Shown piece after piece: positions 6,585 to 55,221 of a stretch of 64,000 bases of DNA (the first letter of the stretch is position 1; every line of letters begins with the position of its first letter). Under the pieces are notes generated by a model. That model was not told the origin of the DNA and did not search any database. It saw nothing but the letters and a program-made list of their open reading frames with translations. A program made the translations under genes and the position numbers. Source of the DNA: a virus; the IMG/VR virus record IMGVR_UViG_3300037140_000126, positions 60,955-124,954 of that record; one strand, given 5' to 3'.

Positions 6585-8129
6585 TTAGTTCACACCACGG
6601 TGTATCTCGCCCTGATCCATCAGCTCGGCCGCAGTCAACTGGTTTTTGAACCACATTCTCGTTGTCGGATCGAGTTCGACCGGAGCGTTTGCAAAAATCT
6701 GATCGACCTCTTCGACACTGAGTTTCTTGCCTTCGGCCTTGAGTTCCCGCACATCCACGTTGTTCTTCGAAAGGAAGTTGCCCAATTCGGCCGAAACAGA
6801 ACGCCTGTCCGTCTTCTCAGCGTACTGCTCCGCTTGTGCTTCGAGGGCATCGACTTGGTTCTGCAAAGTTCCCAGTCTATTGTCCGCATTCGCTTTCAAC
6901 GTGCGGTACTTCTTGCGCAACGCACGATGCGAAGCATAGAGTTCCCGAATAACCGAAGACGCTTGAATCGAACGCGTGCTGCTTGCTTTGACGAGTTCTT
7001 TCATGTGCTTTGGCTTTCCGATTTTCCCTGTGCGGGTTGTCTTGTCGCCCATGTTTTCGAAGTCCTTGTTGAGTTCCCCTGGTTTATCTTCTCCGGCGGT
7101 GTCGTCTTCCAAGTCCTCCAGCGCTGCATCGAGGTCCTCATCGTCATCGTCGTCCTCTTCGTCTTTCTTTTTCTTTTTGCTGTCAGCCTCGTCATCGTCC
7201 TCGCTGTCGGCGGCCATTTCTTCTTCCGCCTTCGCAGCGAGTTCATCGACCTCTTCCTCAACATCATCGTCCTCATGATGCGAGGCTTCGAGGCTTAGTG
7301 CTTTTGCTTCTTCCACGGAAGCAGCAATACTGGTAATGCTCGCTTGCTGCCTCTTTAGCACGCTAACGAATGGCTGCAACGATTCCGTTACAGCTTTGGC
7401 AATCGCCGGGCCGACACCAGCAGCAATTGCTTGTACAAGTCGCTGGCCGTCGCTGCTCGCTGCTTTCTCCTTCTTTTCAGGCTTCATACGTCCTCCTTCA
7501 GATTGACGGTCGTTTGCCGCTGCTGCGGCCAGTACCGTTTTTAATGCGATCTTGCGGATTTCTTTTTTCACACGAGAACCCCACATCTCACCGAGGTGCT
7601 GAATCGCACCGGCACTCAAACTCGTTTGCGTATACGCGGCAGCGCTCTTGAACAGGATCGTCGCACCGCTGAAATGAAAGTCTTCGAGGTACCAAACAGG
7701 GGCGTCTTTCTGACGTACAGTCACATCTTGCAACTCCATGCTCATGCCTAGTCTTCCCGTTTGCATGTCCTTCTTGACTTTCGGGAAGTCGCGCTGCCAG
7801 AAAAAGCCATTCACGATGACTTTGTTTCCCTCGATTTTTGCGCCTGTAATCACACCGACTTTATGTTGTGGCGCATGGGCCGAAAGCTCTGCTGAATAGT
7901 TCACACCCATGTTGATAAGGCTCGTCAGGCGCTTCTTTGCAACAGTAGTGGGAACGTAAATACGGTGACCTTCGGCCCCATGCGGGGGTTTATCGGAGGG
8001 AACATCGAGTAGCAGAAGAGTGCCCGTAAAGGGCATCTTATTTGGATGGATTTTATCTTGAGGACCTACGGCGCAGACGCCAATGCAGCCGTCATTGCCG
8101 AATCTCATTGTTGAGAGGCGCAGTTTCAT
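6585..8129 (-). CDS. Prohead protease fused to scaffold-like domain
   Basis: 514 residues. Residues 1-180 resemble phage prohead maturation proteases: an internal His (SAHAPQHKVG) and a Ser in RLGMSMELQDV, then FSGATILFKSAAAY, a typical family ending. The remainder looks like scaffold: a very acidic Asp/Glu/Lys tract (around 290-350) and a predicted coiled coil (around 395-445). Protease and scaffold are often fused or overlapping in one reading frame. It should act inside the procapsid and may cleave internal proteins, which bears on the leader-tag hypothesis. Confidence 0.75.
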   Translation of the reverse strand: MKLRLSTMRFGNDGCIGVCAVGPQDKIHPNKMPFTGTLLLLDVPSDKPPHGAEGHRIYVPTTVAKKRLTSLINMGVNYSAELSAHAPQHKVGVITGAKIEGNKVIVNGFFWQRDFPKVKKDMQTGRLGMSMELQDVTVRQKDAPVWYLEDFHFSGATILFKSAAAYTQTSLSAGAIQHLGEMWGSRVKKEIRKIALKTVLAAAAANDRQSEGGRMKPEKKEKAASSDGQRLVQAIAAGVGPAIAKAVTESLQPFVSVLKRQQASITSIAASVEEAKALSLEASHHEDDDVEEEVDELAAKAEEEMAADSEDDDEADSKKKKKDEEDDDDDEDLDAALEDLEDDTAGEDKPGELNKDFENMGDKTTRTGKIGKPKHMKELVKASSTRSIQASSVIRELYASHRALRKKYRTLKANADNRLGTLQNQVDALEAQAEQYAEKTDRRSVSAELGNFLSKNNVDVRELKAEGKKLSVEEVDQIFANAPVELDPTTRMWFKNQLTAAELMDQGEIHRGVN

Positions 8130-8212: not shown

Positions 8213-11200
8213 TTACTGATATGAACCTGTATCGCCACCACTGCGGGGATACTTTCCGCGCTTGCCCTTCTGTATTAGCTTCTGTTCGCCAGGCATGTAC
8301 GCGCTATTAGAATCATTAGGACGAGAGAAACCCCTATAACGATCATTGAGGTATTGCTCCACAACCGTGGGCTTGCGCAGGGACTCTTGGAACTTCTTGA
8401 CCTGTCCGCGCTCGTCGGCCTTACTAACTTTCTCGGGCTCTTCTTCACCATCTTGCTCATCCTTTTCTACTTGCTCGAAAAACTCTTTCAGTTCGTCGTT
8501 CAGTTGTTCGAGAACACCGGGCTGCTGTGTCTCCATTTGTTGACCAAGTTCACCCGTCTCAGGCAGCATACCCATCTCTTGGAAATACTGAACTTCTTCA
8601 GGTGTCATCTGCTGAATATCATCAGAGCTGAATTCCCCCTGCCCAATCAAGCTGCCCTGGAAGCCACGCATACCGCCAGAATTTGCCGATGCTGTCGGAG
8701 ACATTGCCCCAGCGCCACCCGTAGGCGGCAAACCGGAACTTACGCCCATACCGCCGCCACCGTTTCCACCTGCTCCAGCGCCACCACCCTGAGGCATTGA
8801 CTTCGCTCTTGCTAGAGCCATCGCTTCTTGGATCAGAATATTCATCATGCCGAATGTCAGCTTGCCCCAGCCATCGGGAAGCGGCGGCTTACCATCAGAC
8901 TCGCGCATTTCATCCGGCAGCAGTGCATTGCTCTGATACTGGCGCTGCTGGATTTGAACTTTCGTAAGCGCATCGGGATCGTCCAGACCCTTAAAGACGA
9001 ATTGCAAATCTTTCCAGCCTAGAAAGCCGTGTAAGAGTTCCCGCGTGAACGCTTCCATCAACCGTGTCGCCATTGGCACGACAGCGGCCTTGAAATCGGA
9101 AATCGACATTATTAAGCCGGTCGATCTATTGACATCCTTTTCCAAACCAAGACTGAACGGGGATAGATCAAATCCGTTCGCAGTACAACGGATCAACATT
9201 TCCTGCCATTCGAGCAGCAAGTCTTGAATCAGGACAGACTGCACCGGGATGACCTCGGGCTTTTTCATGCCCGCAATTAGGCTGACTTTCGCCTGACCTT
9301 CTAGCTCATTCTGAATGTGCCTGCGCACCGTCTGGATGTGCGCTTGATTTTGTGGCTGTTCCCACCACAGGAACGTCTTATGCACTTGATCGGAGCCCGC
9401 TTTACTGGCCATGTCCTGTACGCCGAGTAGCGCATTGACCGTATTGAAAGTAACTTCAAGCTTGCCTAAGCCAAAAGGAGTATTTGCCCTTACATTGTCC
9501 CGGATATAGACCAGTTCATCGGCTAGGAATGCGACAACGCCGCGCTCCCCTTTGAGTCCCGTCATTTGCGCGAAGCGTGGTCGTTCCGTGTTGCTTTCCG
9601 ACCAGTCGGCATAGATGCGGATTGTAGAACCATCCACAGACCACATTTTCATTGGGCGTTTATAGTAGGGCGTCATGCGAGGCTCAATGCAACCATAGCC
9701 ACCGATGATCGTATCTTCCAAAACCGCTTCAGAGAACGTCCGAAACGAGTCCACATTATTAGGATGTTCAAAACAATTCTTGACGATACGAATTCTCTTC
9801 TCCCGTTCTTTCGGGTCGCCCTCATTCTCCATGTCCGGCATAGCCTCAATGTCCCATTTCAGTTGAAGCACAGCATTCTTAATTAGGTTGATTGCCCGAC
9901 GAGGAATTGGGGTTTCACTGAACCTACGGAGATTATAGGGGGTTTGACCACACCATGCGGCCTTGCCATTACGACGAACATAGATAACCCCATCTGGAAC
10001 GCCGACGCAGTAGACCTTACCTGAATACTCCTGTACCTCCACATGCCTTAAACCCGACCACTTGAGGAGATTTTCATAGACACAATAAAATGGCGCACGC
10101 ATTCTGCCACTAGCCATTTTCTTTGACGGTCTGGTATGAAGCGTTCCTCCTGTTCCGAGCTTAATCAGAATTTCCTGAATGTCGTTTGCAAGCCGCTGAC
10201 TTGCGGTCGCAAACATTCGTGTTCGTTGAAACGATCCATCGCCAATCCAAAACCAGTGTAGCAAGATTTTGAGATACTTTGGCGGAAGATTTTTTACCCA
10301 AGTGGGCACATACTTTGTATAAGTATTGCCAAGCGGATGTAGCTTCTCATGCAGGGCTTTACTCTGAATGCGGAAACCGCGCTTACGCAATTGGACATGG
10401 AATGGCAAACGCCCAAGCAACTCGGCAATTGCTGTATAGCTTTCACTCTTGCGCTCCTGTGCTATGCCAACAGTCCACATCATCCCTACAGAACGATTAA
10501 ATTCTTGGTTTGATCCATCGGCAGCGGCGGCAATTGCTTGAACATACAAAGGCCTAGAATCCACGTCCGCATCTTTCTCCATACCAGCAAATGCAGATTC
10601 ACAGTGGCCCTCAGCTAGATACAGTCCTAGAAAGGCAACCCAATCCTCAAGCAGAACGGTGTAATCTTCCGGGTGACGACCGCCCTTGTCGCTGCATCGT
10701 TCAGTCTTAATAGTTACAGATTCAAACGGAATCTTCCCAATCCATGCTTTAGAAGTAAGGGGAACCTCGAATCGTACAAACCCATGGCCGTCCCCATTTG
10801 CTATGTGCTCTGCTACATCCTTCGCAAATTGAAACCCTTTTTTGTCTTTGGCAAATGCACCACTATTTCCTTTCGGTCCTGCCCAACGAACAGATCGGCC
10901 ATACATGCGATGGTGTGGCGTAACCAAAAAGTCCAAGCACTTGCCAGTCAGGTGCACCATCGGGCCAGAGTAATCAACAACCATAAATTTCTTGGCGTGC
11001 TGCCAGTGAATCTCACCATTCTTACTACGCGTAGCATATAAATCATCTGGACGAGCTTCTGGCCATGGCACCCAGCCTCGCTTTGTGAGTACCTGTGTAT
11101 CGGCAGAGAAGCAATTTTTCAAAATCGGTTGGTTCAACCTATGGAGCGCCTCTGGCAAATAGGGATATTGCCAGGTTCTCCGATCCACAATGTCAAATTG

Positions 11201-11392
11201 CCCATCGCGGACCGCTTGAATCTCTTGCGTGTGCCGCTGCTTGACAAGCCCCCATTGTTCACCGGGGGTAGCGGACAGTTCTTGGGAATGGGCATTTGAC
11301 ATTACGCGGACAATTTCTTGCGTGCGGAAGTGCCTCGCAGCACGCGCTTCCAGGTCCCTGTGGAACTGCCTGATTGCCTCAAGAATCGCCAT
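8213..11392 (-). CDS. Portal protein interrupted by an intein
   Basis: 1059 residues as translated. Residues 1-93 and 484-1059 form the portal, about 669 residues after splicing. The extein reads NLRRFSETPIPRRAIN, a portal-like start, and its C-terminal tail is Gly/Gln/Glu-rich and disordered. The portal is the dodecameric DNA channel and packaging-motor dock. Residues 94-483 are an intein with a LAGLIDADG endonuclease. A weak promoter-like TATTATA sits about 20-25 bases upstream of the ATG. Confidence 0.85.
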   Translation of the reverse strand: MAILEAIRQFHRDLEARAARHFRTQEIVRVMSNAHSQELSATPGEQWGLVKQRHTQEIQAVRDGQFDIVDRRTWQYPYLPEALHRLNQPILKNCFSADTQVLTKRGWVPWPEARPDDLYATRSKNGEIHWQHAKKFMVVDYSGPMVHLTGKCLDFLVTPHHRMYGRSVRWAGPKGNSGAFAKDKKGFQFAKDVAEHIANGDGHGFVRFEVPLTSKAWIGKIPFESVTIKTERCSDKGGRHPEDYTVLLEDWVAFLGLYLAEGHCESAFAGMEKDADVDSRPLYVQAIAAAADGSNQEFNRSVGMMWTVGIAQERKSESYTAIAELLGRLPFHVQLRKRGFRIQSKALHEKLHPLGNTYTKYVPTWVKNLPPKYLKILLHWFWIGDGSFQRTRMFATASQRLANDIQEILIKLGTGGTLHTRPSKKMASGRMRAPFYCVYENLLKWSGLRHVEVQEYSGKVYCVGVPDGVIYVRRNGKAAWCGQTPYNLRRFSETPIPRRAINLIKNAVLQLKWDIEAMPDMENEGDPKEREKRIRIVKNCFEHPNNVDSFRTFSEAVLEDTIIGGYGCIEPRMTPYYKRPMKMWSVDGSTIRIYADWSESNTERPRFAQMTGLKGERGVVAFLADELVYIRDNVRANTPFGLGKLEVTFNTVNALLGVQDMASKAGSDQVHKTFLWWEQPQNQAHIQTVRRHIQNELEGQAKVSLIAGMKKPEVIPVQSVLIQDLLLEWQEMLIRCTANGFDLSPFSLGLEKDVNRSTGLIMSISDFKAAVVPMATRLMEAFTRELLHGFLGWKDLQFVFKGLDDPDALTKVQIQQRQYQSNALLPDEMRESDGKPPLPDGWGKLTFGMMNILIQEAMALARAKSMPQGGGAGAGGNGGGGMGVSSGLPPTGGAGAMSPTASANSGGMRGFQGSLIGQGEFSSDDIQQMTPEEVQYFQEMGMLPETGELGQQMETQQPGVLEQLNDELKEFFEQVEKDEQDGEEEPEKVSKADERGQVKKFQESLRKPTVVEQYLNDRYRGFSRPNDSNSAYMPGEQKLIQKGKRGKYPRSGGDTGSYQ
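9944..11113 (-). mobile_element. Intein with LAGLIDADG homing endonuclease in the portal gene
   Basis: 390 residues. The N-terminal splicing block starts at Cys94 (CFSADTQVLTKRGW), with a second block carrying TPHHR near residue 158. LAGLIDADG motifs are FLGLYLAEGH (254-263) and LLHWFWIGDGS (377-387). The C-terminal block is VYCVGVPDGVIYVRRNG followed by WCGQ and the +1 residue Thr484. The terminal residue is Gln rather than Asn and the penultimate residue is Gly rather than His, which is uncommon. Removing it joins LKN to TPYNLRRF. Confidence 0.85.
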
Positions 11393-14503: not shown

Positions 14504-14507
14504 ATCG

Positions 14508-32571: not shown

Positions 32572-32585
32572 TATGATACAGAAAC
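32572..32585 (-). promoter_or_regulatory. Extended -10-like site
   Basis: Minus strand CTGTATCATACTTG contains TG-TATCAT, about 25-30 bases before the resolvase-like start. No clear -35. Confidence 0.35.
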
Positions 32586-32588
32586 ACT

Positions 32589-32981: not shown

Positions 32982-32993
32982 TGCTCTTCTCCT

Positions 32994-34711: not shown

Positions 34712-34714
34712 CTC

Positions 34715-35410: not shown

Positions 35411-35470
35411 GTTAAACCTAGCAGAGTGGGGCGGCTGTGCTACTACCACCCCACACCGCAATAAGGTATT

Positions 35471-36991: not shown

Positions 36992-37004
36992 AACGGCATA
37001 CATG

Positions 37005-37073
37005 CTAATCATCCCAACCGTCAGAAGTGCCATAGGACTCAATCAAATCTTGCATAGCGGCTTGCAGGTTCAT
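37005..37073 (-). CDS. 22-residue MNLQ peptide
   Basis: The ATG overlaps the upstream stop (ATGA). The peptide begins MNLQAAMQDLIESYG and ends with an acidic tail. Its first four residues match the shared leader. It could be a minimal member of the tagged series or a remnant of one. Confidence 0.4.
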   Translation of the reverse strand: MNLQAAMQDLIESYGTSDGWDD

Positions 37074-37573
37074 AGTTTGAATTCCTTATTGCCATGCACT
37101 AAATAAGGAACGTCATCGGATTTGAACTGATGAACTGTTTGAATCCTATCAGGTGGAATGCCGCCCTGATACTTCAACCACTGTCCTTTGCTGCTCGCTT
37201 GTCCTAGAGGGTCGCTCTCTTTATCTTGTTTCCAGTCTTCGTCACCCCTTGAAAGTTTCAGAATAGAAACCTTCCCGCTTCCAGTTGCTTGGTTGAACGC
37301 CCAATCCATCTTTGCAGCCCATCGAAGTGCATCATGTGCATTGCTAAATGTATTTATCTCTCCTTTACCATACCTTGATTTATCACCTTGCTTAACCCAG
37401 TTAGAAGTCTGCATTGGCTTCAGTCCCTCTTTCTGGATTTTTGGGACAAGGTTAGTATGCGTAACGTGATATACACTTCCGCCAGAACTTTTTCTGCCAC
37501 ACGTTCCGGCAGCGGGATTACATCCAGACCCAGCACCACCAGCGTGAATCGAAATTGTAGTCTGAAGGTTCAC
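37070..37573 (-). CDS. Tagged ADP-ribosyltransferase-like protein
   Basis: 167 residues. Leader MNLQTTISIHA (1-11), linker GGAGSGCNPAAGTCGRK (12-28), then an enzyme-like domain starting VYHVTHTNLVPKIQKEGLKP. That H-x-T...I...G-L pattern is like the NAD-binding start of ART/RNA 2'-phosphotransferase-type folds. Phage ARTs such as T4 Alt are carried in the capsid and modify host proteins on entry. It overlaps both neighbours by four bases. Confidence 0.6.
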   Translation of the reverse strand: MNLQTTISIHAGGAGSGCNPAAGTCGRKSSGGSVYHVTHTNLVPKIQKEGLKPMQTSNWVKQGDKSRYGKGEINTFSNAHDALRWAAKMDWAFNQATGSGKVSILKLSRGDEDWKQDKESDPLGQASSKGQWLKYQGGIPPDRIQTVHQFKSDDVPYLVHGNKEFKL

Positions 37574-38172
37574 TTGTCCAGCACCTTTTCCAAGAATACA
37601 CGCTTGTTCTCGGACAGTCTATTTTTCTGGCCCATTACGTAAAACCCAAATGCGTCTGAGAAATCCTCATCAGAATTTTTCTCACTGTAGCGCCGAGCAA
37701 AACGAGCACCTTCCCGATGCGTTTCACTAGAAGTCTGCTTCGGCCAGCCAGAACGCTTTTCCTGATACGGTGGCGCTTGCCCTTCTGCGTGTCCTTCTTG
37801 CCAGCCACTCAGATGTTTCCATTCGTCTTGCTGCTTCACGGATAAACTCAGGAAAACTCCGTGCCCAAATTCGTGTGCGAGTGTCAAGTCTACGTGTGGC
37901 AGCTTTCTTCCCGGGCCATGGCCAAACTTTATGCGGCTGCGAAAATCACGCGGATTCAGATATACAACACCGCTTTCCTCATAGCGTCCGTGCTTCGCTC
38001 CCATCGTTCGGTCGGCCACAATCGTTTGCACGTGTTCCAGATAACGCGATGGAATCTCCGACAGCACTTGCCTGATCTGTTCTTGCTCCGCATTCGTAAA
38101 GCCTTCCAGCTTCACAGCAGCACGAGCGACGGGGTGCGACGCATACACCGAAATGGTAGTCTCAAGATTCAT
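37570..38172 (-). CDS. Leader-bearing zincin metallopeptidase-like protein
   Basis: 200 residues. Leader MNLETTISVYA without either linker. LAHEFGHGVF (99-108) holds the HExxH zinc motif. Upstream, SGVVYLNPRDF resembles the strand before the active site of small phage zincins. It is probably a metallopeptidase acting on host or virion proteins. It overlaps the next gene by ATGA. Confidence 0.65.
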   Translation of the reverse strand: MNLETTISVYASHPVARAAVKLEGFTNAEQEQIRQVLSEIPSRYLEHVQTIVADRTMGAKHGRYEESGVVYLNPRDFRSRIKFGHGPGRKLPHVDLTLAHEFGHGVFLSLSVKQQDEWKHLSGWQEGHAEGQAPPYQEKRSGWPKQTSSETHREGARFARRYSEKNSDEDFSDAFGFYVMGQKNRLSENKRVFLEKVLDK

Positions 38173-38315
38173 TTCTTGACCGGAACTCCGAACGTCACGT
38201 CCCCATTGGGCTTGATTATTTTGACCATCTCCGCTTGCGCTTTCTCGACGGGCGTGAAGTCTTTCTTCAAATAGACAACAATCGTTCCGTCTTTTTGCTT
38301 AATGATGCTGGGCAT
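38169..38315 (-). CDS. 48-residue basic protein
   Basis: MPSIIKQKDGTIVVYLKKDF, then a helix and a short beta end (GDVTFGVPVKK). It overlaps the gene before by 17 bases and the gene after by ATGA, so it is part of the coupled run. Small size and charge suggest an accessory or inhibitor protein for the adjacent peptidase, which is only inference. Confidence 0.6.
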   Translation of the reverse strand: MPSIIKQKDGTIVVYLKKDFTPVEKAQAEMVKIIKPNGDVTFGVPVKK

Positions 38316-38910
38316 AGTAGTCATTCACCCTCTTATACAAATCTTTCCACTGAGCGGTCCCGGGCAGCTTTCCCGTGTCGGACTGTAATCGCGCCATCTC
38401 GGCAAGCGTCTCATGCACACCCAATGCAATACCTGCTTCATGGCTATACACTTGACGCCAGCACTCTTCACTGTAGCCTGTTACCCCATCGTCCTTTGCC
38501 AAACCCATAAGGTTTTCCTGATTCATATTGTGGTCGTCCGCAAATGCCTTAAATTTTAGATGCTCTAATTCGTGGGCGACAACACCGCCGATTGGCATAT
38601 TCTGGGCATGTTCTAACCACACATCTGGGTGAAATTCAATAATTCCGGTGTTATTGTGGCTTACTGCAATTGGCTGCACTCCGAAATTGGAATCCACAGG
38701 GGCTTTATAGACAATTGTGGTCTTACTCTTGTCATAGCCCTGCTTTTCAATTTCCTTCAGGAATTCATCCACAGCAGCTTTTTCTTTTGTGGTACGAGTA
38801 GTGGTACTTGCAGGTCGGGCCTTCCTTCCACGGCCGCGCTCGTCCCATTCTTTCTTGACGCCCTCGGAAGTTCCGGTAGCGAAGATCGTAATTGTCGTTT
38901 CAAGGTTCAT
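38299..38910 (-). CDS. Tagged zincin peptidase-like protein
   Basis: 203 residues from the ATG at 38910 (AGAGG five bases upstream, ATGA overlap). Leader MNLETTITIFA, then class-B linker GTSEGVKKEWDERGRGRK (13-30), then a domain with VVAHELEHLKF (111-121), an HExxH zinc motif, and SHEAGIALGVHETLAE later. A second peptidase-like protein in the same series, with a sequence unlike the 37570-38172 product. Confidence 0.7.
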   Translation of the reverse strand: MNLETTITIFATGTSEGVKKEWDERGRGRKARPASTTTRTTKEKAAVDEFLKEIEKQGYDKSKTTIVYKAPVDSNFGVQPIAVSHNNTGIIEFHPDVWLEHAQNMPIGGVVAHELEHLKFKAFADDHNMNQENLMGLAKDDGVTGYSEECWRQVYSHEAGIALGVHETLAEMARLQSDTGKLPGTAQWKDLYKRVNDYYAQHH

Positions 38911-39326
38911 TCGAGCCTCTTGATATGTGCCATGGTCTTTTCCACATCGCGGTCCCAATGAACACCACGATCATCCACGTAGGCAATCGCCGGAGGCTTG
39001 TGGCTCGTCACACCATCTACTGGGATATTATTCTTAGCGAGAAATTTCACCACAACATCGTGATTATCCCGCGCCGTAAGGACGACCACGCGGTAGCCCT
39101 CGCTCTTCAGCCGCCGCACTAGCTCCGCTCCCTCAGGAATCATCTTTCTAGGCGTTGTCTCCCCGCCGCCTTTTTTGTGTTCTATAAGCGTGTTATCGAA
39201 ATCAACGCACACCAAACCACCCCGATATTTCGCGCCGCCTGCTCCCTTTGGACGACCACAGTTAGAACCCTCACACACTGAACCAGGCCCACCAGCATAA
39301 ATCGAGATTGTAACAGTGAGATTCAA
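38907..39326 (-). CDS. Tagged HAD-type phosphatase-like protein
   Basis: 139 residues. Leader MNLTVTISIYA, linker GGPGSVCEGSNCGRPK, then VCVDFDNTLIEH (39-50), the HAD nucleophile motif D-x-D-x-T. VVVLTARDNH supplies motif II and VDDRGVHW part of the acidic end. Like small polynucleotide or sugar phosphatases with a minimal cap. ATGA overlap downstream. Confidence 0.75.
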   Translation of the reverse strand: MNLTVTISIYAGGPGSVCEGSNCGRPKGAGGAKYRGGLVCVDFDNTLIEHKKGGGETTPRKMIPEGAELVRRLKSEGYRVVVLTARDNHDVVVKFLAKNNIPVDGVTSHKPPAIAYVDDRGVHWDRDVEKTMAHIKRLE

Positions 39327-39484
39327 TTGACCTTTTTCCGTTCCAGTTTCTTCTTCTCTTGCTCATACAGTTTCTCGAAATGCTGCACGTCTTTCTTTGT
39401 TGCAAACGGGTCTGGTGCATCATCTACCCACTTATGCCGCTTTTGCGCGTTGCTCGCCTTGGGCTGCTTTACCTCGATACTCAT
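39323..39484 (-). CDS. Small charged protein
   Basis: 53 residues from the ATG at 39484, the start best separated from the upstream gene. Lys/Glu-rich coiled coil (VQHFEKLYEQEKKKLERKK). It overlaps the end of the kinase gene by 53 bases. Possibly an antidote-sized partner of the zeta-like kinase, but there is no motif support. Confidence 0.5.
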   Translation of the reverse strand: MSIEVKQPKASNAQKRHKWVDDAPDPFATKKDVQHFEKLYEQEKKKLERKKVN

Positions 39485-40349
39485 TCCAACGTCCTCCGTC
39501 ATGAATTGTTTCAGGGCCCATCCCGTCACGGCTATAAACAAGTTTAGGTGCAGAACCTAGAGGCCCTGAATTATCGTAGAACTCTTTCCTACTTACTTCC
39601 GGCATATCCTTGAGGCGCATGAAATTTGCCGCTGCTCCGTAATGTGACTGTTCTATTATCCGGTCTGGCACGATACGCCCAAAATTGATTGGATCATTCG
39701 ATGACTGCGCCCGGAGATCGGCACGCTGTCTAGCTACGTCTAAAGGAACATCAAAAAACGCAGCTCTCACTGTATAGCCCTTATCGGTTAGTGACTTCGC
39801 CATAGAAGGACCACCGTTGCCGGAAGTTGTGGCGTCGTACACAATATCCAAACCTTTTACGGCGGCACGTGCTACCGCCATATGGGTTATGTCCGATGCC
39901 TCTTCATGGACTCTTGCGGAAGCGTTCTGTGGGTCAGTCTGTTTCAGTTGCGCGTATTCGGGCAGGGCTGTACGAATCTCATCAGAATCTATTCGCACAA
40001 TGTTAGTATTGCCCTTCATAAGCGCATCACTGCCGGAAGTTTTTCCAGAAGCCGTACCGCCGCCTAACAGAATCGCTATAGGAGCCCGTCCAACGGGTGC
40101 GGTCTTTCCTTTCAGTATCCGATCCACAACTCGGTCGTGAAATGCTCTGCGCTTCGGGTCCCACTCTCCTGATTTATTCTGCCACGCATAAATCGTGTGC
40201 TCACCTGGTTTCAAAGTTTTTACAGGGGCCCTGAGATTAGAGAAGTCCGCACCCTTTGGGATAGCGCTCTTAGGACGGCCACAATTAGGACCACGGCAAC
40301 CACTTCCAGGTCCGCCAGCAAAGATCGAAATTGTAGTCTGAAGGTTCAT
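39432..40349 (-). CDS. Tagged zeta toxin-like kinase
   Basis: 305 residues. Leader MNLQTTISIFA, linker GGPGSGCRGPNCGRPK, then a P-loop, LLGGGTASGKTSGS (94-107), and IDSDEIRTALPEY, the substrate-binding D-x-D-E-I/R typical of zeta/PezT kinases. ARVHEEASDI and YDATTSG also fit. Zeta toxins phosphorylate UDP-N-acetylglucosamine-type precursors. No epsilon-like antitoxin is recognised nearby. Confidence 0.75.
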   Translation of the reverse strand: MNLQTTISIFAGGPGSGCRGPNCGRPKSAIPKGADFSNLRAPVKTLKPGEHTIYAWQNKSGEWDPKRRAFHDRVVDRILKGKTAPVGRAPIAILLGGGTASGKTSGSDALMKGNTNIVRIDSDEIRTALPEYAQLKQTDPQNASARVHEEASDITHMAVARAAVKGLDIVYDATTSGNGGPSMAKSLTDKGYTVRAAFFDVPLDVARQRADLRAQSSNDPINFGRIVPDRIIEQSHYGAAANFMRLKDMPEVSRKEFYDNSGPLGSAPKLVYSRDGMGPETIHDGGRWNEYRGKAAQGEQRAKAA

Positions 40350-40358
40350 TGACCCGTC

Positions 40359-40610
40359 TTAGTAGAGCCCGAACAGATGCATGAACGCAATCACCACAAC
40401 TAAGACGAAGCACCAATAGAGAATCGTCACCCAAGGTTGACCGACACCAAGTGCCGGAAGAAGAAGTGATACAATTTTCCAGCAGATAGCGATCAGGATA
40501 ATGAGACAGATCAGCCCGATGAAAACACCGAACAGGCCGTCGATTCCTAAGAACCCGTAATGATGCACACCCAACGTCTGTAATGCGAGTGAAGCGAACA
40601 TGCTTTTCAT
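40359..40610 (-). CDS. Two-span membrane protein
   Basis: 83 residues with spans GVFIGLICLIILIAICWKIV and VTILYWCFVLVVVIAFMHL. AGGAGG lies before the ATG. Topology fits a class II holin-like or accessory protein, but no lysis genes are recognised next to it. Confidence 0.6.
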   Translation of the reverse strand: MKSMFASLALQTLGVHHYGFLGIDGLFGVFIGLICLIILIAICWKIVSLLLPALGVGQPWVTILYWCFVLVVVIAFMHLFGLY

Positions 40611-40629
40611 TGCTGCCTCCTTATAGTTT

Positions 40630-41376
40630 TCAAAACTGGCCTAGGTAACTACCCGTGTGGTGGGCTACCGCAGTGTTTGGAGGAATGCCTCCCAGCGTCG
40701 GATGCTTTTTCGTTTGCTGCAATCGGAAGCGCTGCGTGGCCTTGTCCGTACGCTTCGTGACATCCAAGAACGAATCGTCTTTTTCCATTGGATCATCAAC
40801 GGGGACACGCTTCGGATTCTTCAAACTTGGTGGGTGAAAGCTAGGTATAGGATCAATATGGGCCATCCCAACTGGCCCTTCCATTGCTCTCATTGCTTGC
40901 TCTAGCTTCGAGGCGGTAAGTTTCTGTGGTCTGAAATTCGGATGCCCAACACGTTGCTTGAACTCTGACATGGGCATCGCCGTCATCGAACCAAAATGTC
41001 TAGCATCGCCGCCATAGTTTTCGATTAGTGCTTTTTTTGCGGCATCAGCAGAATTCCATCCAAGAAGCACTTTGTGTTCGTCCGGCTTCTCAAACTCAGG
41101 GGCTTTCTTCGTTATCACGATATACGCGGTAGTAGCGTTTGCATCTGGGCCAATAAAGACATCCAGCGAATCCCCGTCAACCCCCGGTACGCCACGGATA
41201 TATCCGTAGTGTGCTTGTAGCTTCGTTCGCCAGCAAGTATGGGGCTTGCCCTTTTCACACTTCCCTTTTCTGACTGAGCCTTTCTTGTTCTCGATGGACA
41301 CAGGAAGCCCCTGAAACGAGGTATGCCCGTCGAGTTTGTGTTGCGCTTGCAATCCGCAAAGAGTCGATAAATTCAC
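40630..41376 (-). CDS. Inorganic pyrophosphatase-like phage domain protein
   Basis: 248 residues. The start MNLSTLCGLQAQHKLDG is weakly leader-like. YGYIRGVPGVDGDSLDVFIG (57-76), then DEHKVLLGW and a later MPMSEFKQRVGHP, match the InPase domain described in phage and polymorphic-toxin proteins. The metal-binding D-G-D-x-x-D-V is intact. It probably hydrolyses a phosphoanhydride. Confidence 0.7.
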   Translation of the reverse strand: MNLSTLCGLQAQHKLDGHTSFQGLPVSIENKKGSVRKGKCEKGKPHTCWRTKLQAHYGYIRGVPGVDGDSLDVFIGPDANATTAYIVITKKAPEFEKPDEHKVLLGWNSADAAKKALIENYGGDARHFGSMTAMPMSEFKQRVGHPNFRPQKLTASKLEQAMRAMEGPVGMAHIDPIPSFHPPSLKNPKRVPVDDPMEKDDSFLDVTKRTDKATQRFRLQQTKKHPTLGGIPPNTAVAHHTGSYLGQF

Positions 41377-41675
41377 TACCTTGGTTCTCCGTAGCCGTCG
41401 AATCCGCCTGATTGCGCTTCTTTGTCCTGTTTGCGTGGTTTAATTTCTTCCCTCATGGCTATTAGCTGCTTCGCCGGAATCCACGGGCATGATGCTTCAT
41501 GCCTTACATTTTCTTCGTTGTGTCCGCTGATAGCGCGGCAAAGAGCACATTTACGAACAAATGATTTAGTCAAACGGGATGGTGTTCCGGGCACAGGGGG
41601 AATTACAGATGTTTCATAAACTGGATCGGATTCGGCTAGAGCTTTAATAATATCGTGTGGTGTCATATGAATCAT
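41376..41675 (-). CDS. Cys/His small protein
   Basis: 99 residues. CALCRAISGHNEENVRHE and SCPW give C-x2-C-H...H-C zinc ligands near residue 45-65; the tail is basic. GAGG is six bases before the ATG. It is the first gene after the composite element at 41703-41760. Confidence 0.6.
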   Translation of the reverse strand: MIHMTPHDIIKALAESDPVYETSVIPPVPGTPSRLTKSFVRKCALCRAISGHNEENVRHEASCPWIPAKQLIAMREEIKPRKQDKEAQSGGFDGYGEPR

Positions 41676-41702
41676 TCAAATCCTCGTTTTTCGAGTCCTA
41701 GA

Positions 41703-41760
41703 CGTTCTCTAGGATGCACGCTAGACGCATTTCCCGTCGATTTCCCGATACTTACGGGCA
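41703..41760 (-). promoter_or_regulatory. Composite regulatory element, copy 2
   Basis: Core CGGGAAATCGACGGGAAA at 41730-41747 (minus), preceded by TGCCCGTAAGTAT and followed by CGTGCATCC and GAACG, with the same spacing as copy 1 at 18.0 kb. Confidence 0.55.
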
Positions 41761-41777
41761 ATCCTACTACTTAGAGA

Positions 41778-42419
41778 CTATCTGCCGCCAAAATTGCTTC
41801 CAAACGAGCCACTGCCGGGACGCTGTTGCATCTGCGGACGCTGGCCGCCACCCTGACCTGGACGTGACTGCTGGCCGCCACCGGGACGTTGACCATTACC
41901 GCCAGGGCGCTGCCCTCCACCGCCAAATCCGCCTCCGCCTCTTGACGCCCCAGCCTTCGGCGGTGCTTCTCCGATTGCGGCATGCCCCTTAGGCGTGAGA
42001 CTCCAGACATGACGCAATCCGCCTCCAGCACCGCCCAGCCTTGAACCTTGATGCTGCAAGTGGCCGGAACGAGCAAGTTGCTTCGCCTTCTCATGGCTTT
42101 CTTTGTTCGCGGTCACGAACGTACCAGTGCCGCCTGCAGCATTCTTCAGAAACGAGTGCAACTGTTTCGCTTGGTCCACAGGGTAGCGCTGCGGATCGGC
42201 GTTCACTTCATGCATCGGGAACTCGCCCTCGTTCTGTGCTTGCTCCTGCTGCATTTGCTGCTCTTGCTCTTGTTGCCCAATATCATCGGGACTCAGCATT
42301 GCCTGATCGTCTGTGTCATCCTGATTCATAGGCTGATTGTTATTCACAGGCGCGGGCTGTGCTGTCGGTTGCTGACGAATCTGTTCACGTGCGATGATGT
42401 CACGAATTGTTGAGTACAT
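41778..42419 (-). CDS. Gln/Gly-rich disordered protein with winged-helix-like middle
   Basis: 213 residues. The N-terminal third is Gln/Asp-rich, the middle (PQRYPVDQAKQLHSFLKNA to HVWSLTPKGHAAIG) looks like a small folded domain, and the C-terminus consists of GGGQRPGG-type repeats. Low-complexity tails of this sort can drive assembly or nucleic-acid binding. Function unknown. Confidence 0.55.
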   Translation of the reverse strand: MYSTIRDIIAREQIRQQPTAQPAPVNNNQPMNQDDTDDQAMLSPDDIGQQEQEQQMQQEQAQNEGEFPMHEVNADPQRYPVDQAKQLHSFLKNAAGGTGTFVTANKESHEKAKQLARSGHLQHQGSRLGGAGGGLRHVWSLTPKGHAAIGEAPPKAGASRGGGGFGGGGQRPGGNGQRPGGGQQSRPGQGGGQRPQMQQRPGSGSFGSNFGGR

Positions 42420-42441
42420 TTCATTCCTCCAAGTTTAATAG

Positions 42442-43287
42442 TTACCAAGATTTCCCGAGATGCTGCATACGGCAGTCGCTAGTAAGATTAGGGTCCATTA
42501 AGTACGAATACGATATCCAAGCAAATCCACGACTCTTCGATAACGAGGGTTCAGGCGGAGCAATACCCCAACTGGGTCCCCAGCTATTCTGGACGAGCAC
42601 AGCTCCGGGATTTGCGTTCGGACACTTAATTTCGTCGTCGAATCCAATCAAGGCGTGTGTTTCGTGGCCGCCTTGAAGAGATTCCACTCCTAAATTCGGC
42701 AGCGGTATTAGCCCAGAGGTTTCCACGGCGTCATCTTCAAATGAATCGTAGACAGAAATACCGATGACTGCAGAATAATCAGAGAGGATGCAGGATTTAA
42801 TATTCGCAATATCATTGCCGATGGAATGCCACGAACCACCTGGATTTTGTAGGGCGGATGCTAATGCCTGTGGTGTCGGGGCAGTTGAGTAGTCGGCTGC
42901 GTTATAAGGCATCAAAGACTCTAGACAAAATCCATTTGCCCCGTTCTGTGCAACTTGCAAACTGGTCGCTACCTGTGCTCCGCAATCTCCTTGGCCCAGA
43001 GTTTTTTCAATCTTACGCTCGATATAGTAATGAAATGCTGGGGCAAAAATGGGGGATTGACCTTTGAATTTACGGTACAGTCGCTCACCTTGAGATGTAG
43101 AGCCATGCCCAGTGCACGAACCTTGGTTACCCTGGTCCTTCGTCGGCCCAAGTGCTCCCGTAATAAAAGCTCTTACTGGAAATTCGCCTGTGCGAACAAT
43201 CAGATGCGACGGGAAGCCAAGATAATTTGGATTTGGTGTCGATGCAAAAGCCCCGAGTCCGTGCCCTTTGCGTGTCATCATTGCCAT
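42442..43287 (-). CDS. Papain-like (C1) cysteine protease
   Basis: 281 residues. DQGNQGSCTGHGST (51-64) holds the oxyanion Gln and catalytic Cys58. GGHETHALIGFDD carries the His and VLVQNSWGPSWG the Asn, in family C1 order. There is no leader tag, but it lies within the run of tagged genes. It could process internal virion proteins or degrade host proteins. Confidence 0.8.
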   Translation of the reverse strand: MAMMTRKGHGLGAFASTPNPNYLGFPSHLIVRTGEFPVRAFITGALGPTKDQGNQGSCTGHGSTSQGERLYRKFKGQSPIFAPAFHYYIERKIEKTLGQGDCGAQVATSLQVAQNGANGFCLESLMPYNAADYSTAPTPQALASALQNPGGSWHSIGNDIANIKSCILSDYSAVIGISVYDSFEDDAVETSGLIPLPNLGVESLQGGHETHALIGFDDEIKCPNANPGAVLVQNSWGPSWGIAPPEPSLSKSRGFAWISYSYLMDPNLTSDCRMQHLGKSW

Positions 43288-43291
43288 CGGA

Positions 43292-43852
43292 TTATTCTCC
43301 TGGTCCTTTGCCTAGTTTATGAACCGCCGACTCGTCTTTCTCTATTCTATAACCATTCCGGTAACCAACTCCGCCGCGCCAGTCTTGTACTTGAATCGTT
43401 ACGCGCCGACCTTTCACTTGCACGACTGTTCCACGACTTGTCAGACCATCCACGGTCACAGGATCACCTACTTTTATTTCCGATAAAACAACAGACGATC
43501 CTTGCAATCCCCTTTTTTCTGAAACTCTTAACTTAGCCCTAGCATTCTCACCATACCTAGAAGAATCGGAACGGCCGGATTCCTCATATACGCCATCTTT
43601 TAACCATCCACCACCAACCACCCTCTCAGGAGGAATTCCTAAATCATTTATAAGCATAACGTGGGTGCGTTGTTTTTCAGGCTGCCCATCAAAATAAATT
43701 CCCCCATCATCCGTTCTGACAGCAGCAAACTGACCTTCATCTGGAAGTTTAGGTTGTGGAGGCAAAGCACTTTGTTTACGGCCACAATTTGGCCCAGTAC
43801 ATCCACTCCCTGGTCCGCCAGCATGAATTGCAATAGTCATTTCCAAATTCAT
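43292..43852 (-). CDS. Tagged protein with KOW-like C-terminus
   Basis: 186 residues. Leader MNLEMTIAIHA, linker GGPGSGCTGPNCGRK (12-26), then an unassigned domain. Its C-terminal part, VGDPVTVDGLTSRGTVVQVK, looks like a small beta barrel. Shares the exact tag of the kinase and ART-like proteins. Confidence 0.6.
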   Translation of the reverse strand: MNLEMTIAIHAGGPGSGCTGPNCGRKQSALPPQPKLPDEGQFAAVRTDDGGIYFDGQPEKQRTHVMLINDLGIPPERVVGGGWLKDGVYEESGRSDSSRYGENARAKLRVSEKRGLQGSSVVLSEIKVGDPVTVDGLTSRGTVVQVKGRRVTIQVQDWRGGVGYRNGYRIEKDESAVHKLGKGPGE

Positions 43853-43853
43853 T

Positions 43854-44066
43854 TTAGTTTAGACCCATGCAATGCCACTCGAAGCACCTATCGTCCCACG
43901 AGAACTCCATGCACTCAGGATGCTCTTCTGCAAGTCCAAGCAACACATCCATGTTGGGAACCAGCAGGTCCTCGTCCCCGCATCCGCAAGCGCACATCTC
44001 TACGCTAATCCCATGCAGCATAACCCTTGGCTGCGCTTTCGTGAACGGAGCTACCCAGGCATCCAT
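43854..44066 (-). CDS. Small acidic Cys-rich protein
   Basis: 70 residues with CACGCGDE and CFEWHC as possible metal sites, plus a Glu/Asp-rich middle. It lies between two tagged genes. No family recognised. Confidence 0.55.
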   Translation of the reverse strand: MDAWVAPFTKAQPRVMLHGISVEMCACGCGDEDLLVPNMDVLLGLAEEHPECMEFSWDDRCFEWHCMGLN

Positions 44067-44069
44067 AAA

Positions 44070-44810
44070 TTAAATTACCTGATAACCTCGGAACGAATAA
44101 CCCGTCTGCCTGCGACGACCGCCAGGACGTTGCACGATAATCACAGACCGTTCTGCGGCAGCTGACAACGGCAGTCTGTGCCCCATCTTAGCGGCTTTGT
44201 TCTCATAGCCTGCCCCTTTATGGAAACCAGTATGACCACACCCACTACTATGACCCATACCGCCACGCTTCATTCCAAACGCAGCCATCTTTTTCGATTC
44301 GTTGCACGCTTCGCAGCCACCTTCCTTCTTTGCCTGCAACGGTGGCTGCCCGCCAGTGTACTGCGGATTCTGCGAGGTCGTATCTTGTCCGGCTTTCTTC
44401 GGCATCCGCAAACGATTATCGGGGGCAAATTCAGTCTGTGCACCGATAGGCTTTGCACCAAGAGCTTTTGCACGCTCGTCGATATGCGCCCTTGCAGCGG
44501 CTGGATTCTTGGCCCGACCGATAGCACGCTTGGCATTTGCCAAATCCCCACGATTCACGATAGGAAAGCCGCCACCAGGCATCGCATCACCAGACTTTGC
44601 AAGACTCTTACGCTTTCCTTCGGAGAACTCGCGGGCTTCCATCTCAATATGATGTGCAAGCAAATGATCTGTGCAGGCGTTCTGGTCCTTACATTTTTCA
44701 CCGCACATCTTGCACTTGTACCCGCCGCCTTCAATTTCTTGAAACGAAGCTTTCAGCGGGAATGCATTCGCAGAAGCTGCGATAAAACCAATCGTCTGTT
44801 GGATGTTCAT
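44070..44810 (-). CDS. Leader-like, C2H2-containing internal protein
   Basis: 246 residues. The start MNIQQTIGFIAASANAF is a diverged leader. CKMCGEKCKDQNACTDHLLAHH (broken: two CxxC, then a His pair) resembles a C2H2 finger. GGGFPIVNRGDLANAKRAIG then ARAHIDERAKALG is a short segment common in phage prohead-associated proteins. CEACNES and a Gly/His/Lys-rich tail follow. Confidence 0.6.
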   Translation of the reverse strand: MNIQQTIGFIAASANAFPLKASFQEIEGGGYKCKMCGEKCKDQNACTDHLLAHHIEMEAREFSEGKRKSLAKSGDAMPGGGFPIVNRGDLANAKRAIGRAKNPAAARAHIDERAKALGAKPIGAQTEFAPDNRLRMPKKAGQDTTSQNPQYTGGQPPLQAKKEGGCEACNESKKMAAFGMKRGGMGHSSGCGHTGFHKGAGYENKAAKMGHRLPLSAAAERSVIIVQRPGGRRRQTGYSFRGYQVI

Positions 44811-44823
44811 TTCTTCTCCTTAG

Positions 44824-45033
44824 CTAGTCGTTATGACCCTGCCCGCTGGACTGATTGATCGTTCCACCGAAAAACCAGTTTGAACCTTTCAAGATCGTCG
44901 GTGCAGGAAGCGTTCCCGCATCTTCTGCGGCCTCTTGCACTGTGTAACCGACGGAATTTCTGGCTATAATCATACCAGCGGACTCCATCGCAAGTTCTTT
45001 ATCTCGAAAATATGGGTGAATTTGTAGGGGCAC
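44824..45033 (-). CDS. Small protein with GTG start
   Basis: 69 residues from GTG at 45033, chosen because AAGGAG lies seven bases upstream and longer starts invade the next gene. Begins MPLQIHPYFRDKELAMESAG (GTG read as Met). It is Gly/Ser-rich at the end. Function unknown. Confidence 0.5.
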   Translation of the reverse strand: MPLQIHPYFRDKELAMESAGMIIARNSVGYTVQEAAEDAGTLPAPTILKGSNWFFGGTINQSSGQGHND

Positions 45034-45053
45034 GTTAGTTCTCCTTTTCAAAA

Positions 45054-45065
45054 GTATAATACAGA
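45054..45065 (-). promoter_or_regulatory. Extended -10-like site
   Basis: TCTGTATTATAC on the minus strand, about 25 bases before the GTG start of the 69-residue protein. Contains TG-TATTAT with a weak -35 (TCCACA, 16 bases). Confidence 0.4.
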
Positions 45066-45070
45066 ATTCA

Positions 45071-46003
45071 TCATCCTTGTGGACTCCCGCCAAATGGGCC
45101 ATTTGGATAGGGCAGGGACTTTCTAAACGTACGCACTTGATTGTCTCCCGGTCTGCGGCGAATAAAATCCATAACTTCCGGCGTGTCTTCCATCGGGGTC
45201 GCTTGCTCGACATGAGTGACTACTTTCGTATAACGGTTTCCAGCCGAGGCACTTTCCGCTTCGTCTCTCGTCCTGAACGTGTGAATCACATTGCCGTGTC
45301 CATCAACGACGTAATATTTTAGCGCCGTCAGGCTAGAACCTTCAGACTGGCCACCAGAAGTTGCTTCCAACGAGGGCCTCACTACTGTCCTCTTCCCATT
45401 CTCGAAAAACTCAACACTTTGGATATAGCTCTTGTCAAGTTTTCCGCCATGAAGAATATTGTACTCACCTTTTGCTTCACCTACACTATCATGCCCACTC
45501 AACATCTCAGCGGGCACCCTAACTTTCACGACAGCTCCACGCCCGCCACCAGGAATTAGCACAACCTTGCCACCAACCCGCTTGAAAGAATCAACGCGTC
45601 CATAAGCACCAGCAGCGGTTTTCTTGTCACTTGAAAACGACGTAGTTTTAGGGTCTTCCGGGTCTGCTTTCGTGATGTTTCGTTTCGGATCAAATCCATG
45701 CTGTAGAATAGATTTTGCATTTTCCACCGAAGTGCCATGATAAAGAGTCCTATGACGACCACAATTCTGTCCCTTACAACCACTACCAGGACCACCGCCA
45801 AATACAGCCGTTTTCTGAAGAAACTCTTTTGTGTCGGGATCAACAGTTGCCGTTACACCGCCTTTATCAGGCCCACCTTTACGCATCTTCTCCCGCCCAG
45901 TTGTCCCGTCAGTCTCAGGATGCTGGCCGACAGGAGCGGTGGAGGAAGATGCATCTCCCCCACCGCCTCCAAAGGTGCAATAGATAGTTTCCAGCAGTCG
46001 CAC
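45071..46003 (-). CDS. ADP-ribosyltransferase-like protein with internal tag
   Basis: 310 residues. The N-terminus MRLLETIYCTFGGGG is a diverged leader. A second tag copy, FLQKTAVFGGGPGSGC then KGQNCGRHR (61-84), is internal. The enzyme domain follows: RTLYHGTSVENAKSILQHGF, an ART H-G-T motif. TTSFSSDKKTAAGAY adds the S-T-S-like strand. The C-terminal domain is DGHGNVIHTF-type. Starts at GTG after AAAGG. Confidence 0.7.
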   Translation of the reverse strand: MRLLETIYCTFGGGGGDASSSTAPVGQHPETDGTTGREKMRKGGPDKGGVTATVDPDTKEFLQKTAVFGGGPGSGCKGQNCGRHRTLYHGTSVENAKSILQHGFDPKRNITKADPEDPKTTSFSSDKKTAAGAYGRVDSFKRVGGKVVLIPGGGRGAVVKVRVPAEMLSGHDSVGEAKGEYNILHGGKLDKSYIQSVEFFENGKRTVVRPSLEATSGGQSEGSSLTALKYYVVDGHGNVIHTFRTRDEAESASAGNRYTKVVTHVEQATPMEDTPEVMDFIRRRPGDNQVRTFRKSLPYPNGPFGGSPQG

Positions 46004-49707: not shown

Positions 49708-50000
49708 TGTGGTTCCTCTAATTCAATGATGTGTTTTGCGAGCAAAATATTCGTAGCTTTGATTGCAGCCGCACCTCCACCTGGACGGCCAAGGTCACAT
49801 ACACCAAGTTTCAAATAGATAATTTTGGCATAACTTTTCACTGTGCTTTCCACAATATTCATTTGGACAGCAATTTCCTTATAACACAAGGATTTCCCAA
49901 ACCTTAACTTCGCAAATTCCAACTCCCGATCCGTCAGATGAAATTCAACAGTAGATGTTGGTGGCCCCTTCGACAATCTCGGATGTCTCACGTAGCTCAC
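49704..50000 (-). CDS. LuxR-type helix-turn-helix protein
   Basis: 98 residues from a GTG overlapping the upstream stop (GTGA). HLTDRELEFAKLRFGKSLCY then KEIAVQMNIVESTVKSYAKI is a LuxR/GerE HTH: L-T-x-R-E and S-x-x-T-V-K. There is no receiver or ligand-binding domain. It probably regulates phage or host genes and is co-transcribed with the sugar genes. Confidence 0.7.
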   Translation of the reverse strand: MSYVRHPRLSKGPPTSTVEFHLTDRELEFAKLRFGKSLCYKEIAVQMNIVESTVKSYAKIIYLKLGVCDLGRPGGGAAAIKATNILLAKHIIELEEPQ

Positions 50001-54675: not shown

Positions 54676-55221
54676 TTACTTTGGCACGGTCCCCACACGC
54701 TCGTTAAATCTGCTTGCCATTCTTTCTAGCCTAGAAACCCTTTCCTGCTGTTCTTTTTCTGGTACACCAGACTGGTCCATTTTCCGCTCGGCTTCGGCCA
54801 CCCAATGGTATAGTCCAGTGTAATCAATATGCATAGCGTTCACAGCATTATCCACATCCGCAACGCCAGCATTAGAACTCATTAACCGTTGATCCAAAAT
54901 CTGGTACTGCACATCCCTCTTTCTGGCGGTTTTTCCACGGTCCCCAGGATCACCAAAATAACCCTTATTCTCTTTAACCAGATCGTTCAAGAGTAGATGT
55001 GCGGACATTTTTGCATCCAACAATGTCTCTTCATCGGGGTCCTTCCCTTTGTCAATTGCTTCGTACATTTTATTGATAGACTCCATAAGACGTTCTTCCC
55101 TGACTTTCTCTTTGTCGCTAGGTGCTGATACATTCCTTCCCCGGCCACGAGTGTCCCAAGATTTCTCAACACCTTCCGAGGTGCCGGAAGCAAAAATCGA
55201 GATTGTAGTTTGAAGATTCAT
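54676..55221 (-). CDS. Tagged helical protein
   Basis: 181 residues from the ATG at 55221 (AAGGACC upstream). Leader MNLQTTISIFA, then GTSEGVEKSWDTRGRGRN (13-30, class-B linker), then an all-helical charged body (SINKMYEAIDKGKDPDEETL). The body has no recognised fold. Encoded 13 kb from the main tagged run, showing the tag is not confined to one operon. Confidence 0.65.
   Translation of the reverse strand: MNLQTTISIFASGTSEGVEKSWDTRGRGRNVSAPSDKEKVREERLMESINKMYEAIDKGKDPDEETLLDAKMSAHLLLNDLVKENKGYFGDPGDRGKTARKRDVQYQILDQRLMSSNAGVADVDNAVNAMHIDYTGLYHWVAEAERKMDQSGVPEKEQQERVSRLERMASRFNERVGTVPK

What the first reader, a model, noticed from the sequence alone, without database searches (positions are those of the whole stretch)
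36996..46003. A shared short leader joins unrelated enzymes: candidate phage sorting tag for packaged effectors
Seen: the proteins at 37070, 37570, 38299, 38907, 39432, 43292 and 54676 all start with M-N-L-x-x-T-I-x-(I/V)-(F/H/Y)-A, then change into ART-like, zincin, HAD, zeta-kinase and unassigned domains. The DNA of the leader is also conserved. Known: T4 internal proteins and the ART Alt carry a short N-terminal capsid-targeting sequence removed by the prohead protease. Inferred: this leader does the same job in this phage, so the enzymes travel in the virion and enter the cell with DNA. I know of no description of this leader.
Basis: partly seen in the sequence, partly recalled or inferred. 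Interest (0 to 1): 0.92.

Follow-up and report, generated by a model that had tools for sequence, protein, structure and literature searches.

The report
Phage effector tag with protease-cut site
Seven unrelated enzymes of an uncultured phage start with the same 11-residue tag, which ends in what looks like the cutting site of the phage's own capsid-maturation protease, so the tag probably sends the enzymes into the virus head, where it is cut off before they are injected into the next cell.

Summary
The leader has two parts. Part 1, MNLxxTIxIxA, ends in [ILV]-x-A followed by a small residue. Part 2, when present, is GGPGSGCxGPNCGR or GTSEGVxKxWDxRGRGR.

In other phages the same part-2 motifs sit inside polyproteins, up to four per chain, between the same kinds of enzyme (zeta kinase, zincin, InPase, ART). 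They also follow portal, minor-head and protease domains. In both settings [ILV]-x-A usually precedes them.

The 6585-8129 protein is a capsid protease: its AlphaFold model matches herpesvirus assemblins and T4 gp21 best. All 12 relatives keep an alanine exactly where the protease domain ends (TSLSA|GA), and 10 of 12 have hxA|x near the C-terminus, resembling assemblin's two self-cleavage sites. The leader ends in the same signature. Small motif genes also occupy a fixed slot in the head-neck operon.

The sorting-and-removal reading is well supported by sequence but unproven: there are no virion proteomics or cleavage data. It works like the T4 capsid-targeting sequence with a different cut code; I found no description of it in the open-access papers searched.

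The parts
40317..40349 (-). leader MNLQTTISIFA| of the zeta-toxin-like kinase (gene 39432-40349)
40275..40316 (-). second motif GGPGSGCRGPNCGR of the same protein
43820..43852 (-). leader MNLEMTIAIHA| of gene 43292-43852 (unassigned)
43778..43819 (-). second motif GGPGSGCTGPNCGR
39294..39326 (-). leader (TTG start) MNLTVTISIYA| of HAD-like gene 38907-39326
39252..39293 (-). second motif GGPGSVCEGSNCGR
37541..37573 (-). leader (GTG start) MNLQTTISIHA| of gene 37070-37573 (possible ART, unverified)
37493..37540 (-). second motif GGAGSGCNPAAGTCGR
38140..38172 (-). leader MNLETTISVYA|S of zincin-like (HEFGH) gene 37570-38172; no second motif
38878..38910 (-). leader MNLETTITIFA|T of zincin-like (HELEH) gene 38299-38910
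38824..38874 (-). second motif GTSEGVKKEWDERGRGR
55189..55221 (-). leader MNLQTTISIFA|S of gene 54676-55221 (unassigned)
55135..55185 (-). second motif GTSEGVEKSWDTRGRGR
45755..45796 (-). internal second motif GGPGSGCKGQNCGR in the PARP-like protein 45071-46003, without the first part of the leader
44778..44810 (-). degenerate leader MNIQQTIGFIA|A of gene 44070-44810
   Evidence: 4.8 bits, not significant alone
4175..4726 (-). gene in the head-neck operon with SAIHAY-GTAEGVQKAWDSRGRGR near its N-terminus
6585..8129 (-). prohead protease (residues about 28-175) fused to a charged, coiled-coil scaffold-like tail; predicted to cut the leader
7611..7613 (-). codon of invariant Ala173, putative self-release site TSLSA|GA at the end of the protease domain
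6735..6737 (-). codon of Ala465, putative second self-cleavage site ELKA|EG in the tail
5551..6540 (-). likely major capsid protein, next to the protease
   Evidence: position and 71% identity to the protein after the protease in L013; no Pfam or NCBIfam hit
8213..11392 (-). portal protein (with an intein-like insert), next to the protease

Best explanation
The leader is an N-terminal capsid-targeting propeptide. While the head assembles, MNLxxTIxI- docks each effector to the prohead interior, most likely to the scaffold part of the 6585-8129 protein. That protein's assemblin-like protease then cuts after [IVL]-x-Ala, at the junction before GG, S, T or xGTSEG, freeing the enzyme inside the head, from which it is ejected with the DNA. 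In related phages the same cut code separates domains of large effector polyproteins. Shown: the leader, its second motifs, the predicted protease fold, the matching signatures in the protease's own chain, the reuse of the same domains in solo and polyprotein form, and motif genes in the head-neck operon. Inferred: docking partner, cleavage, packaging and ejection.
For: 1) Seven leaders in one genome, found by a model trained on other phages. 2) The leader ends I/V-x-A|G/S/T. Among 48 motif sites of the GG type that are not at the N-terminus, the residue three before the motif is hydrophobic in 46 and the one before it is Ala in 32. Among 22 GTSEG sites Ala stands two before in 15 (binomial P 2e-24, 2e-24 and 2e-12; related sites are not independent). 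3) The protease model (pLDDT about 95 over residues 30-165) has herpes assemblins as top 15 PDB hits and T4 gp21 at rank 16, probability 1.00. 4) Ala173 is invariant in 12 of 12 relatives and is the last invariant residue before the chain becomes variable; a second hxA|x lies in the C-terminal tail in 10 of 12. HCMV protease assays use a (Val-like)-Asn-Ala|Ser substrate (PMC12632753). 5) 11 of 16 motif-bearing records tested carry this protease family, and the other five are fragments under 60 kb. 6) Motif genes sit between head-tail adaptor and the next neck gene in four phages, and one leader gene lies between portal and protease. 7) The same zincin and zeta domains appear solo with leader here and inside motif-divided polyproteins elsewhere.
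Against: No proteomics or cleavage data exist. The leader genes lie 29-47 kb from the protease in this genome, not in the head operon. Protein 37570 has no second motif, and several relatives have Cys in place of Ala at the predicted cut (L013, L083, L045, L059). In phages with other proteases the motifs are preceded by other residues (VEM, VNL, LANY, SKET), so the motif can exist without the Ala signature. h-x-A is a low-information signature. TM-scores to assemblin are modest (about 0.4) and no PDB E-value is below 1e-3.
Confidence: 0.62

Rival explanations
1. The leader and second motifs are only a domain-shuffling joint: a conserved start/linker segment through which the phage swaps enzyme cassettes by recombination, with flexible Gly-rich spacing and no protease recognition.
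For: Codon identity inside the leader exceeds expectation while the upstream sequence is random; the same domains turn up in many contexts joined by the motifs; Gly/Pro/Ser-rich sequence suits a linker.
Against: Does not predict an [ILV]-x-A signature like that at the end of the protease domain, nor leader conservation in a gene without the Gly motif (37570), nor start-codon changes with the peptide kept.
Confidence: 0.2
2. The leader is a docking signal only: it binds scaffold or portal and carries the enzyme into the head but is never cut.
For: The N-terminal hydrophobic pattern is conserved even where the cut residue is Cys or where no second motif follows.
Against: The conserved Ala or Cys plus small residue at the end, and the match with the protease's own putative sites.
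Confidence: 0.1
3. Double-glycine-type or papain-type processing: the GG of the motif is the cut site for a cysteine peptidase such as the papain-like protein at 42442-43287.
For: A C1-like protein lies inside the cluster (Pfam E 1.1e-3); many leaders end in A-GG.
Against: 37570, 38299 and 54676 have no GG after the leader; cutting GG|P would be unusual; the leader is too short and lacks the usual double-glycine leader pattern.
Confidence: 0.04
4. Plain paralogy: a few recently duplicated genes share their start with no function for the leader.
For: Codon-level similarity among the seven.
Against: Bodies are unrelated folds; the leader recurs in several other phages with different bodies.
Confidence: 0.03

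Closest known systems
T4 capsid-targeting sequence of internal proteins IPI-III (and the Alt propeptide), removed by gp21
   Same: Short N-terminal peptide on otherwise unrelated proteins (10 residues in IPIII, 11 here), early residues thought to target and the last ones to be cut, an assemblin-fold prohead protease, ART among the cargo of T4 (PMC9026906).
   Different: No sequence similarity; predicted cut h-x-Ala|small instead of a Glu-type site; a second motif follows; the signal also divides polyproteins; packaging not demonstrated.
Polyvalent proteins of phages and conjugative elements (PMC5512222)
   Same: Overlapping enzyme domains (ART, zincin, InPase, PBECR), late or virion gene context, predicted virion packaging.
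   Different: That paper names no junction motif or N-terminal leader in the passages read; here single-domain proteins carry the tag and the separators are sequence-defined.
MuF-associated polymorphic toxins of temperate phages (PMC5576092)
   Same: Diverse C-terminal enzyme domains attached to a head-associated unit; some motif proteins found here are fused to portal or minor-head proteins.
   Different: Carrier there is a folded MuF domain; here an 11-residue peptide.
Herpesvirus assemblin/scaffold maturation
   Same: Protease-scaffold fusion with predicted release and tail sites of the (V/L/I)xA|S type; same predicted fold.
   Different: Phage enzyme; its effector substrates have no herpesvirus counterpart that I know of.
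SPN3US gp245 system (AXE| cuts, PMC10052503)
   Same: Prohead protease removing N-terminal propeptides from many head proteins, some only 20-24 residues long.
   Different: Different cut code; SPN3US propeptides are not a shared tag on a set of enzymes.

Membership tests
Prohead protease of the assemblin/gp21 fold (protein 6585-8129) | assemblin/gp21 fold | tested here: met
   AlphaFold model of residues 1-210, 12-sequence alignment; top PDB matches HCMV, HSV and PRV assemblins and T4 gp21, probability 1.00 but E-values just above 1e-3; many phage prohead proteases in BFVD, best E 4e-16
Prohead protease of the assemblin/gp21 fold (protein 6585-8129) | conserved His and Ser of the active site | tested here: met
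   His85 and Ser130 invariant in 12 of 12; third residue not identified
Prohead protease of the assemblin/gp21 fold (protein 6585-8129) | gene next to portal and capsid genes | tested here: met
   portal 8213-11392, protease, likely capsid gene 5551-6540; same order in several relatives
Prohead protease of the assemblin/gp21 fold (protein 6585-8129) | proteolytic activity with cuts after h-x-Ala | not testable with these tools
   needs enzyme assay
T4-type capsid-targeting sequence | shared short N-terminal peptide on unrelated proteins | tested here: met
T4-type capsid-targeting sequence | sequence homology to the T4 signal and a Glu-type cut site | tested here: not met
   leader ends in IxA, not in a Glu-type site (T4 cut code from PMC9026906 and own knowledge)
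T4-type capsid-targeting sequence | peptide directs protein into the head | not testable with these tools
   needs virion proteomics or reporter packaging
T4-type capsid-targeting sequence | removal by the prohead protease | not testable with these tools
   only the signature match is shown
Polyvalent proteins | two or more disparate effector domains in one chain | tested here: not met
   the seven window proteins are 139-305 aa with at most one recognisable domain; relatives such as L001:8756-11956 do combine zeta and zincin domains

The most novel reading that the evidence does not exclude
A modular 'sort-and-cut' code used across several phage lineages: interchangeable short junction motifs, read by each lineage's own capsid protease, both tag single effectors for the head and divide packaged effector polyproteins, so that injected proteins can be listed from sequence alone.
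Probability: 0.4. Interest if true: 0.82.

Novelty: new variant of a known kind. Interest (0 to 1): 0.66.

Why it matters
Which phage proteins are injected with the DNA is usually learned by proteomics of one phage at a time. If this tag works as inferred, a simple sequence model would list the injected effectors of uncultured phages, predict where polyproteins are cut, and supply a second, unrelated capsid-targeting peptide besides that of T4. It would also tie the phage and herpesvirus maturation proteases together by cut preference as well as by fold.

Tried and rejected
Nucleotide similarity of the region to sequenced phages: none. A weak leader hit in a Vibrio phage HAD gene lies on the opposite strand of that gene: chance. 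Protease structure with two sequences failed (pLDDT 42); 12 sequences gave a good model. Secretion signal: rejected, since the leader has no charged n-region and its hydrophobic stretch is too short. Translation or promoter element: rejected, since upstream DNA is random and start codons vary. Papers: no relevant text hit for the motif strings, though sequences in figures cannot be searched. The link between Ala-type junctions and this protease family (12 of 17 records against 0 of 16, P 2e-5) is only suggestive: the second group was chosen because it lacks the Ala signature, many records are fragments, and lineages are not independent.
Full report
WHAT IS THERE. The window is bases 60955-124954 of an uncultured virus record of 124,954 bases. 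To test chance I trained a model of residues 2-11 on 12 leaders from other phages and scored all candidate starts of 124 minus-strand genes in the window and the fetched remainder of the genome (about 54 kb; a stretch of about 7 kb next to the window, mostly one long gene, was not scored). Exactly the seven score 15.8-27.8 bits; the next gene (44070) has 4.8, and no shuffled N-terminus of 24,800 reached 15.8. None lies in the replication half. The training leaders were collected with motif searches and by eye, so the model is independent of this genome but not blind.

ANATOMY. Part 1 is 11 residues, M-N-L-x-x-T-[IV]-x-[IV]-[FHY]-A. The residue after it is always small (G, S or T). Part 2 comes in two kinds. 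GGPGSGC(x)nCGR is found in 37070, 38907, 39432 and 43292, and internally in 45071. GTSEGVxKxWDxRGRGR, one residue later, is found in 38299 and 54676. 37570 has part 1 only. The DNA before the start codon is not conserved (28% identity) and ATG, GTG and TTG are all used, while codons inside the leader agree more often than codon usage predicts (54% against 33%). The peptide is therefore what is kept, with some recent copying.

RELATIVES. Pattern scans of viral contigs found many more cases. They fall into about 60 distinct motif proteins. Some are solo proteins with part 1 at the start (L013, L015, L046, L071, L083). Others are chains of up to 1464 residues in which the motifs recur up to four times, in some cases mixing both kinds (L001, L027, L034, L041). 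Others are portal, minor-head or capsid-protease proteins followed by the motif and then an enzyme. Domains by Pfam include InPase, zeta toxin, PBECR2, DRAT-type ART, RelA/SpoT, NUDIX, GNAT and zincin, plus Peptidase_S78_2 and portals; PHROGs adds minor head, portal and head-maturation protease families. The window's zincin 37570 is 37-41% identical to domains inside motif-bearing chains of L001, L041 and L072. Its zeta kinase (39432) is 48% identical to a domain in L001 that follows SIKAY-GTSEGVTKSW, and about 29% to domains that follow a GGEGSGC motif in Peptidase_S78_2-type proteins. So one domain can travel as a tagged solo protein or as a segment of a chain.

THE CUT-SITE SIGNATURE. Among 48 motif sites of the GG kind not at the N-terminus, the residue three before the motif is hydrophobic in 46 and the residue just before it is Ala in 32 (backgrounds 27% and 8%). 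Among 22 GTSEG sites, Ala is two before in 15. So leaders and internal junctions share [ILV]-x-A. Sites lacking Ala come mostly from other lineages (for example those with Peptidase_S78_2), in which the window's protease family was not found. That comparison is weak, because those records were picked for lacking Ala and many are fragments.

THE PROTEASE. Pfam gives no protease call, but an AlphaFold model from 12 relatives is confident over residues 30-165. Its best PDB matches are herpesvirus assemblins, with T4 gp21 at rank 16, all probability 1.00 with E-values just above 1e-3. Many phage prohead proteases match in the viral library. His85 and Ser130 are invariant. The folded domain ends at TSLSA|GA, and Ala173 is the last invariant residue in all 12. 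The remaining 340 residues are charged and coiled-coil-like, with a second hxA|x at ELKA|EG conserved in 10 of 12. This is the layout of assemblin, with a release site after the protease and a maturation site in the scaffold tail (own knowledge). HCMV protease assays use a (Val-like)-Asn-Ala|Ser substrate (PMC12632753). The leader therefore ends in the signature that this enzyme most likely cuts in itself.

CONTEXT. Of 16 motif-bearing records searched, 11 hold this protease family; the other five are fragments of 42-58 kb. In the window, L013, L031 and L037, one or two small motif genes sit at the same place between the head-tail adaptor and the next neck gene. In L083 a leader gene (MDLRTTITLHC|GGPGSGRH) lies between portal and protease. 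The seven window genes are in a late-type, same-strand island 29-47 kb from the protease.

HOW IT PROBABLY WORKS. By analogy with T4 IPIII, where ten residues suffice, residues 4 and 7 target and residues 8 and 10 are needed for processing (PMC9026906), I propose that the first residues dock the enzyme to the prohead interior and that the protease cuts after residue 11. The freed enzyme stays in the head and is ejected with the DNA. Docking partner, cutting, packaging and ejection are inferred. The second motif stays on the cargo; whether it is a spacer, a DNA-binding element or part of the recognition site is open.

KNOWN OR NEW. Virion packaging of such enzymes has been predicted before (PMC5512222, PMC9503650) and capsid-targeting peptides are known in T4. 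I found no description of this leader, its junction motifs or the h-x-A link in the open-access texts searched, and the passages read in the polyvalent-protein and MuF papers do not mention them. It functions like the T4 signal but is not a member of that family by sequence or cut code. I rate it a new variant of a known kind.

Noticed in passing
window 8213-11392: The portal gene carries an intein-like insert: start CFSADTQVLTKRGW, a LAGLIDADG_3 match at residues 381-423, and the portal in L013 is 427 residues shorter.
   Followed up: partly
L002:7632-9620, L002:15229-17247, L026:6703-7350: A third junction-like motif, (F/Y)xxD(Q/E)xRDxHGR(F/W), occurs near the N-termini of phage polyprotein-type genes and may be an equivalent of GGPGSG and GTSEG in other lineages.
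   Followed up: no
L013, L083, L045, L059: Several leaders have Cys instead of Ala at the predicted cut position (SIYC|GG, TLHC|GG, ELWC|GG, ELRC|GG).
   Followed up: no
window 42442-43287: Papain-like (C1) protein inside the effector island; a similar-sized protein with a possible catalytic Cys region lies in the related locus L001 at 13892-14650.
   Followed up: no
window 40630-41376: InPase-domain protein (Pfam E 1.6e-34) with a degenerate leader MNLSTLCGLQA; InPase-like relatives in L038, L050 and L066 start MDLAAAVALQG, MNLAANIELYA and MNLQSLTANRK.
   Followed up: partly
window 57488-61771: 1427-residue protein with many recurring short repeats (WFGW..VxDDSTES, PPPxP), unlike any PHROG family.
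   Followed up: no
window 31090-35461 and 48751-53737: Sugar-nucleotide, glycosyltransferase-like and methyltransferase-like genes are interleaved with the tagged effectors; similar genes flank tagged genes in L014 and L050.
   Followed up: no
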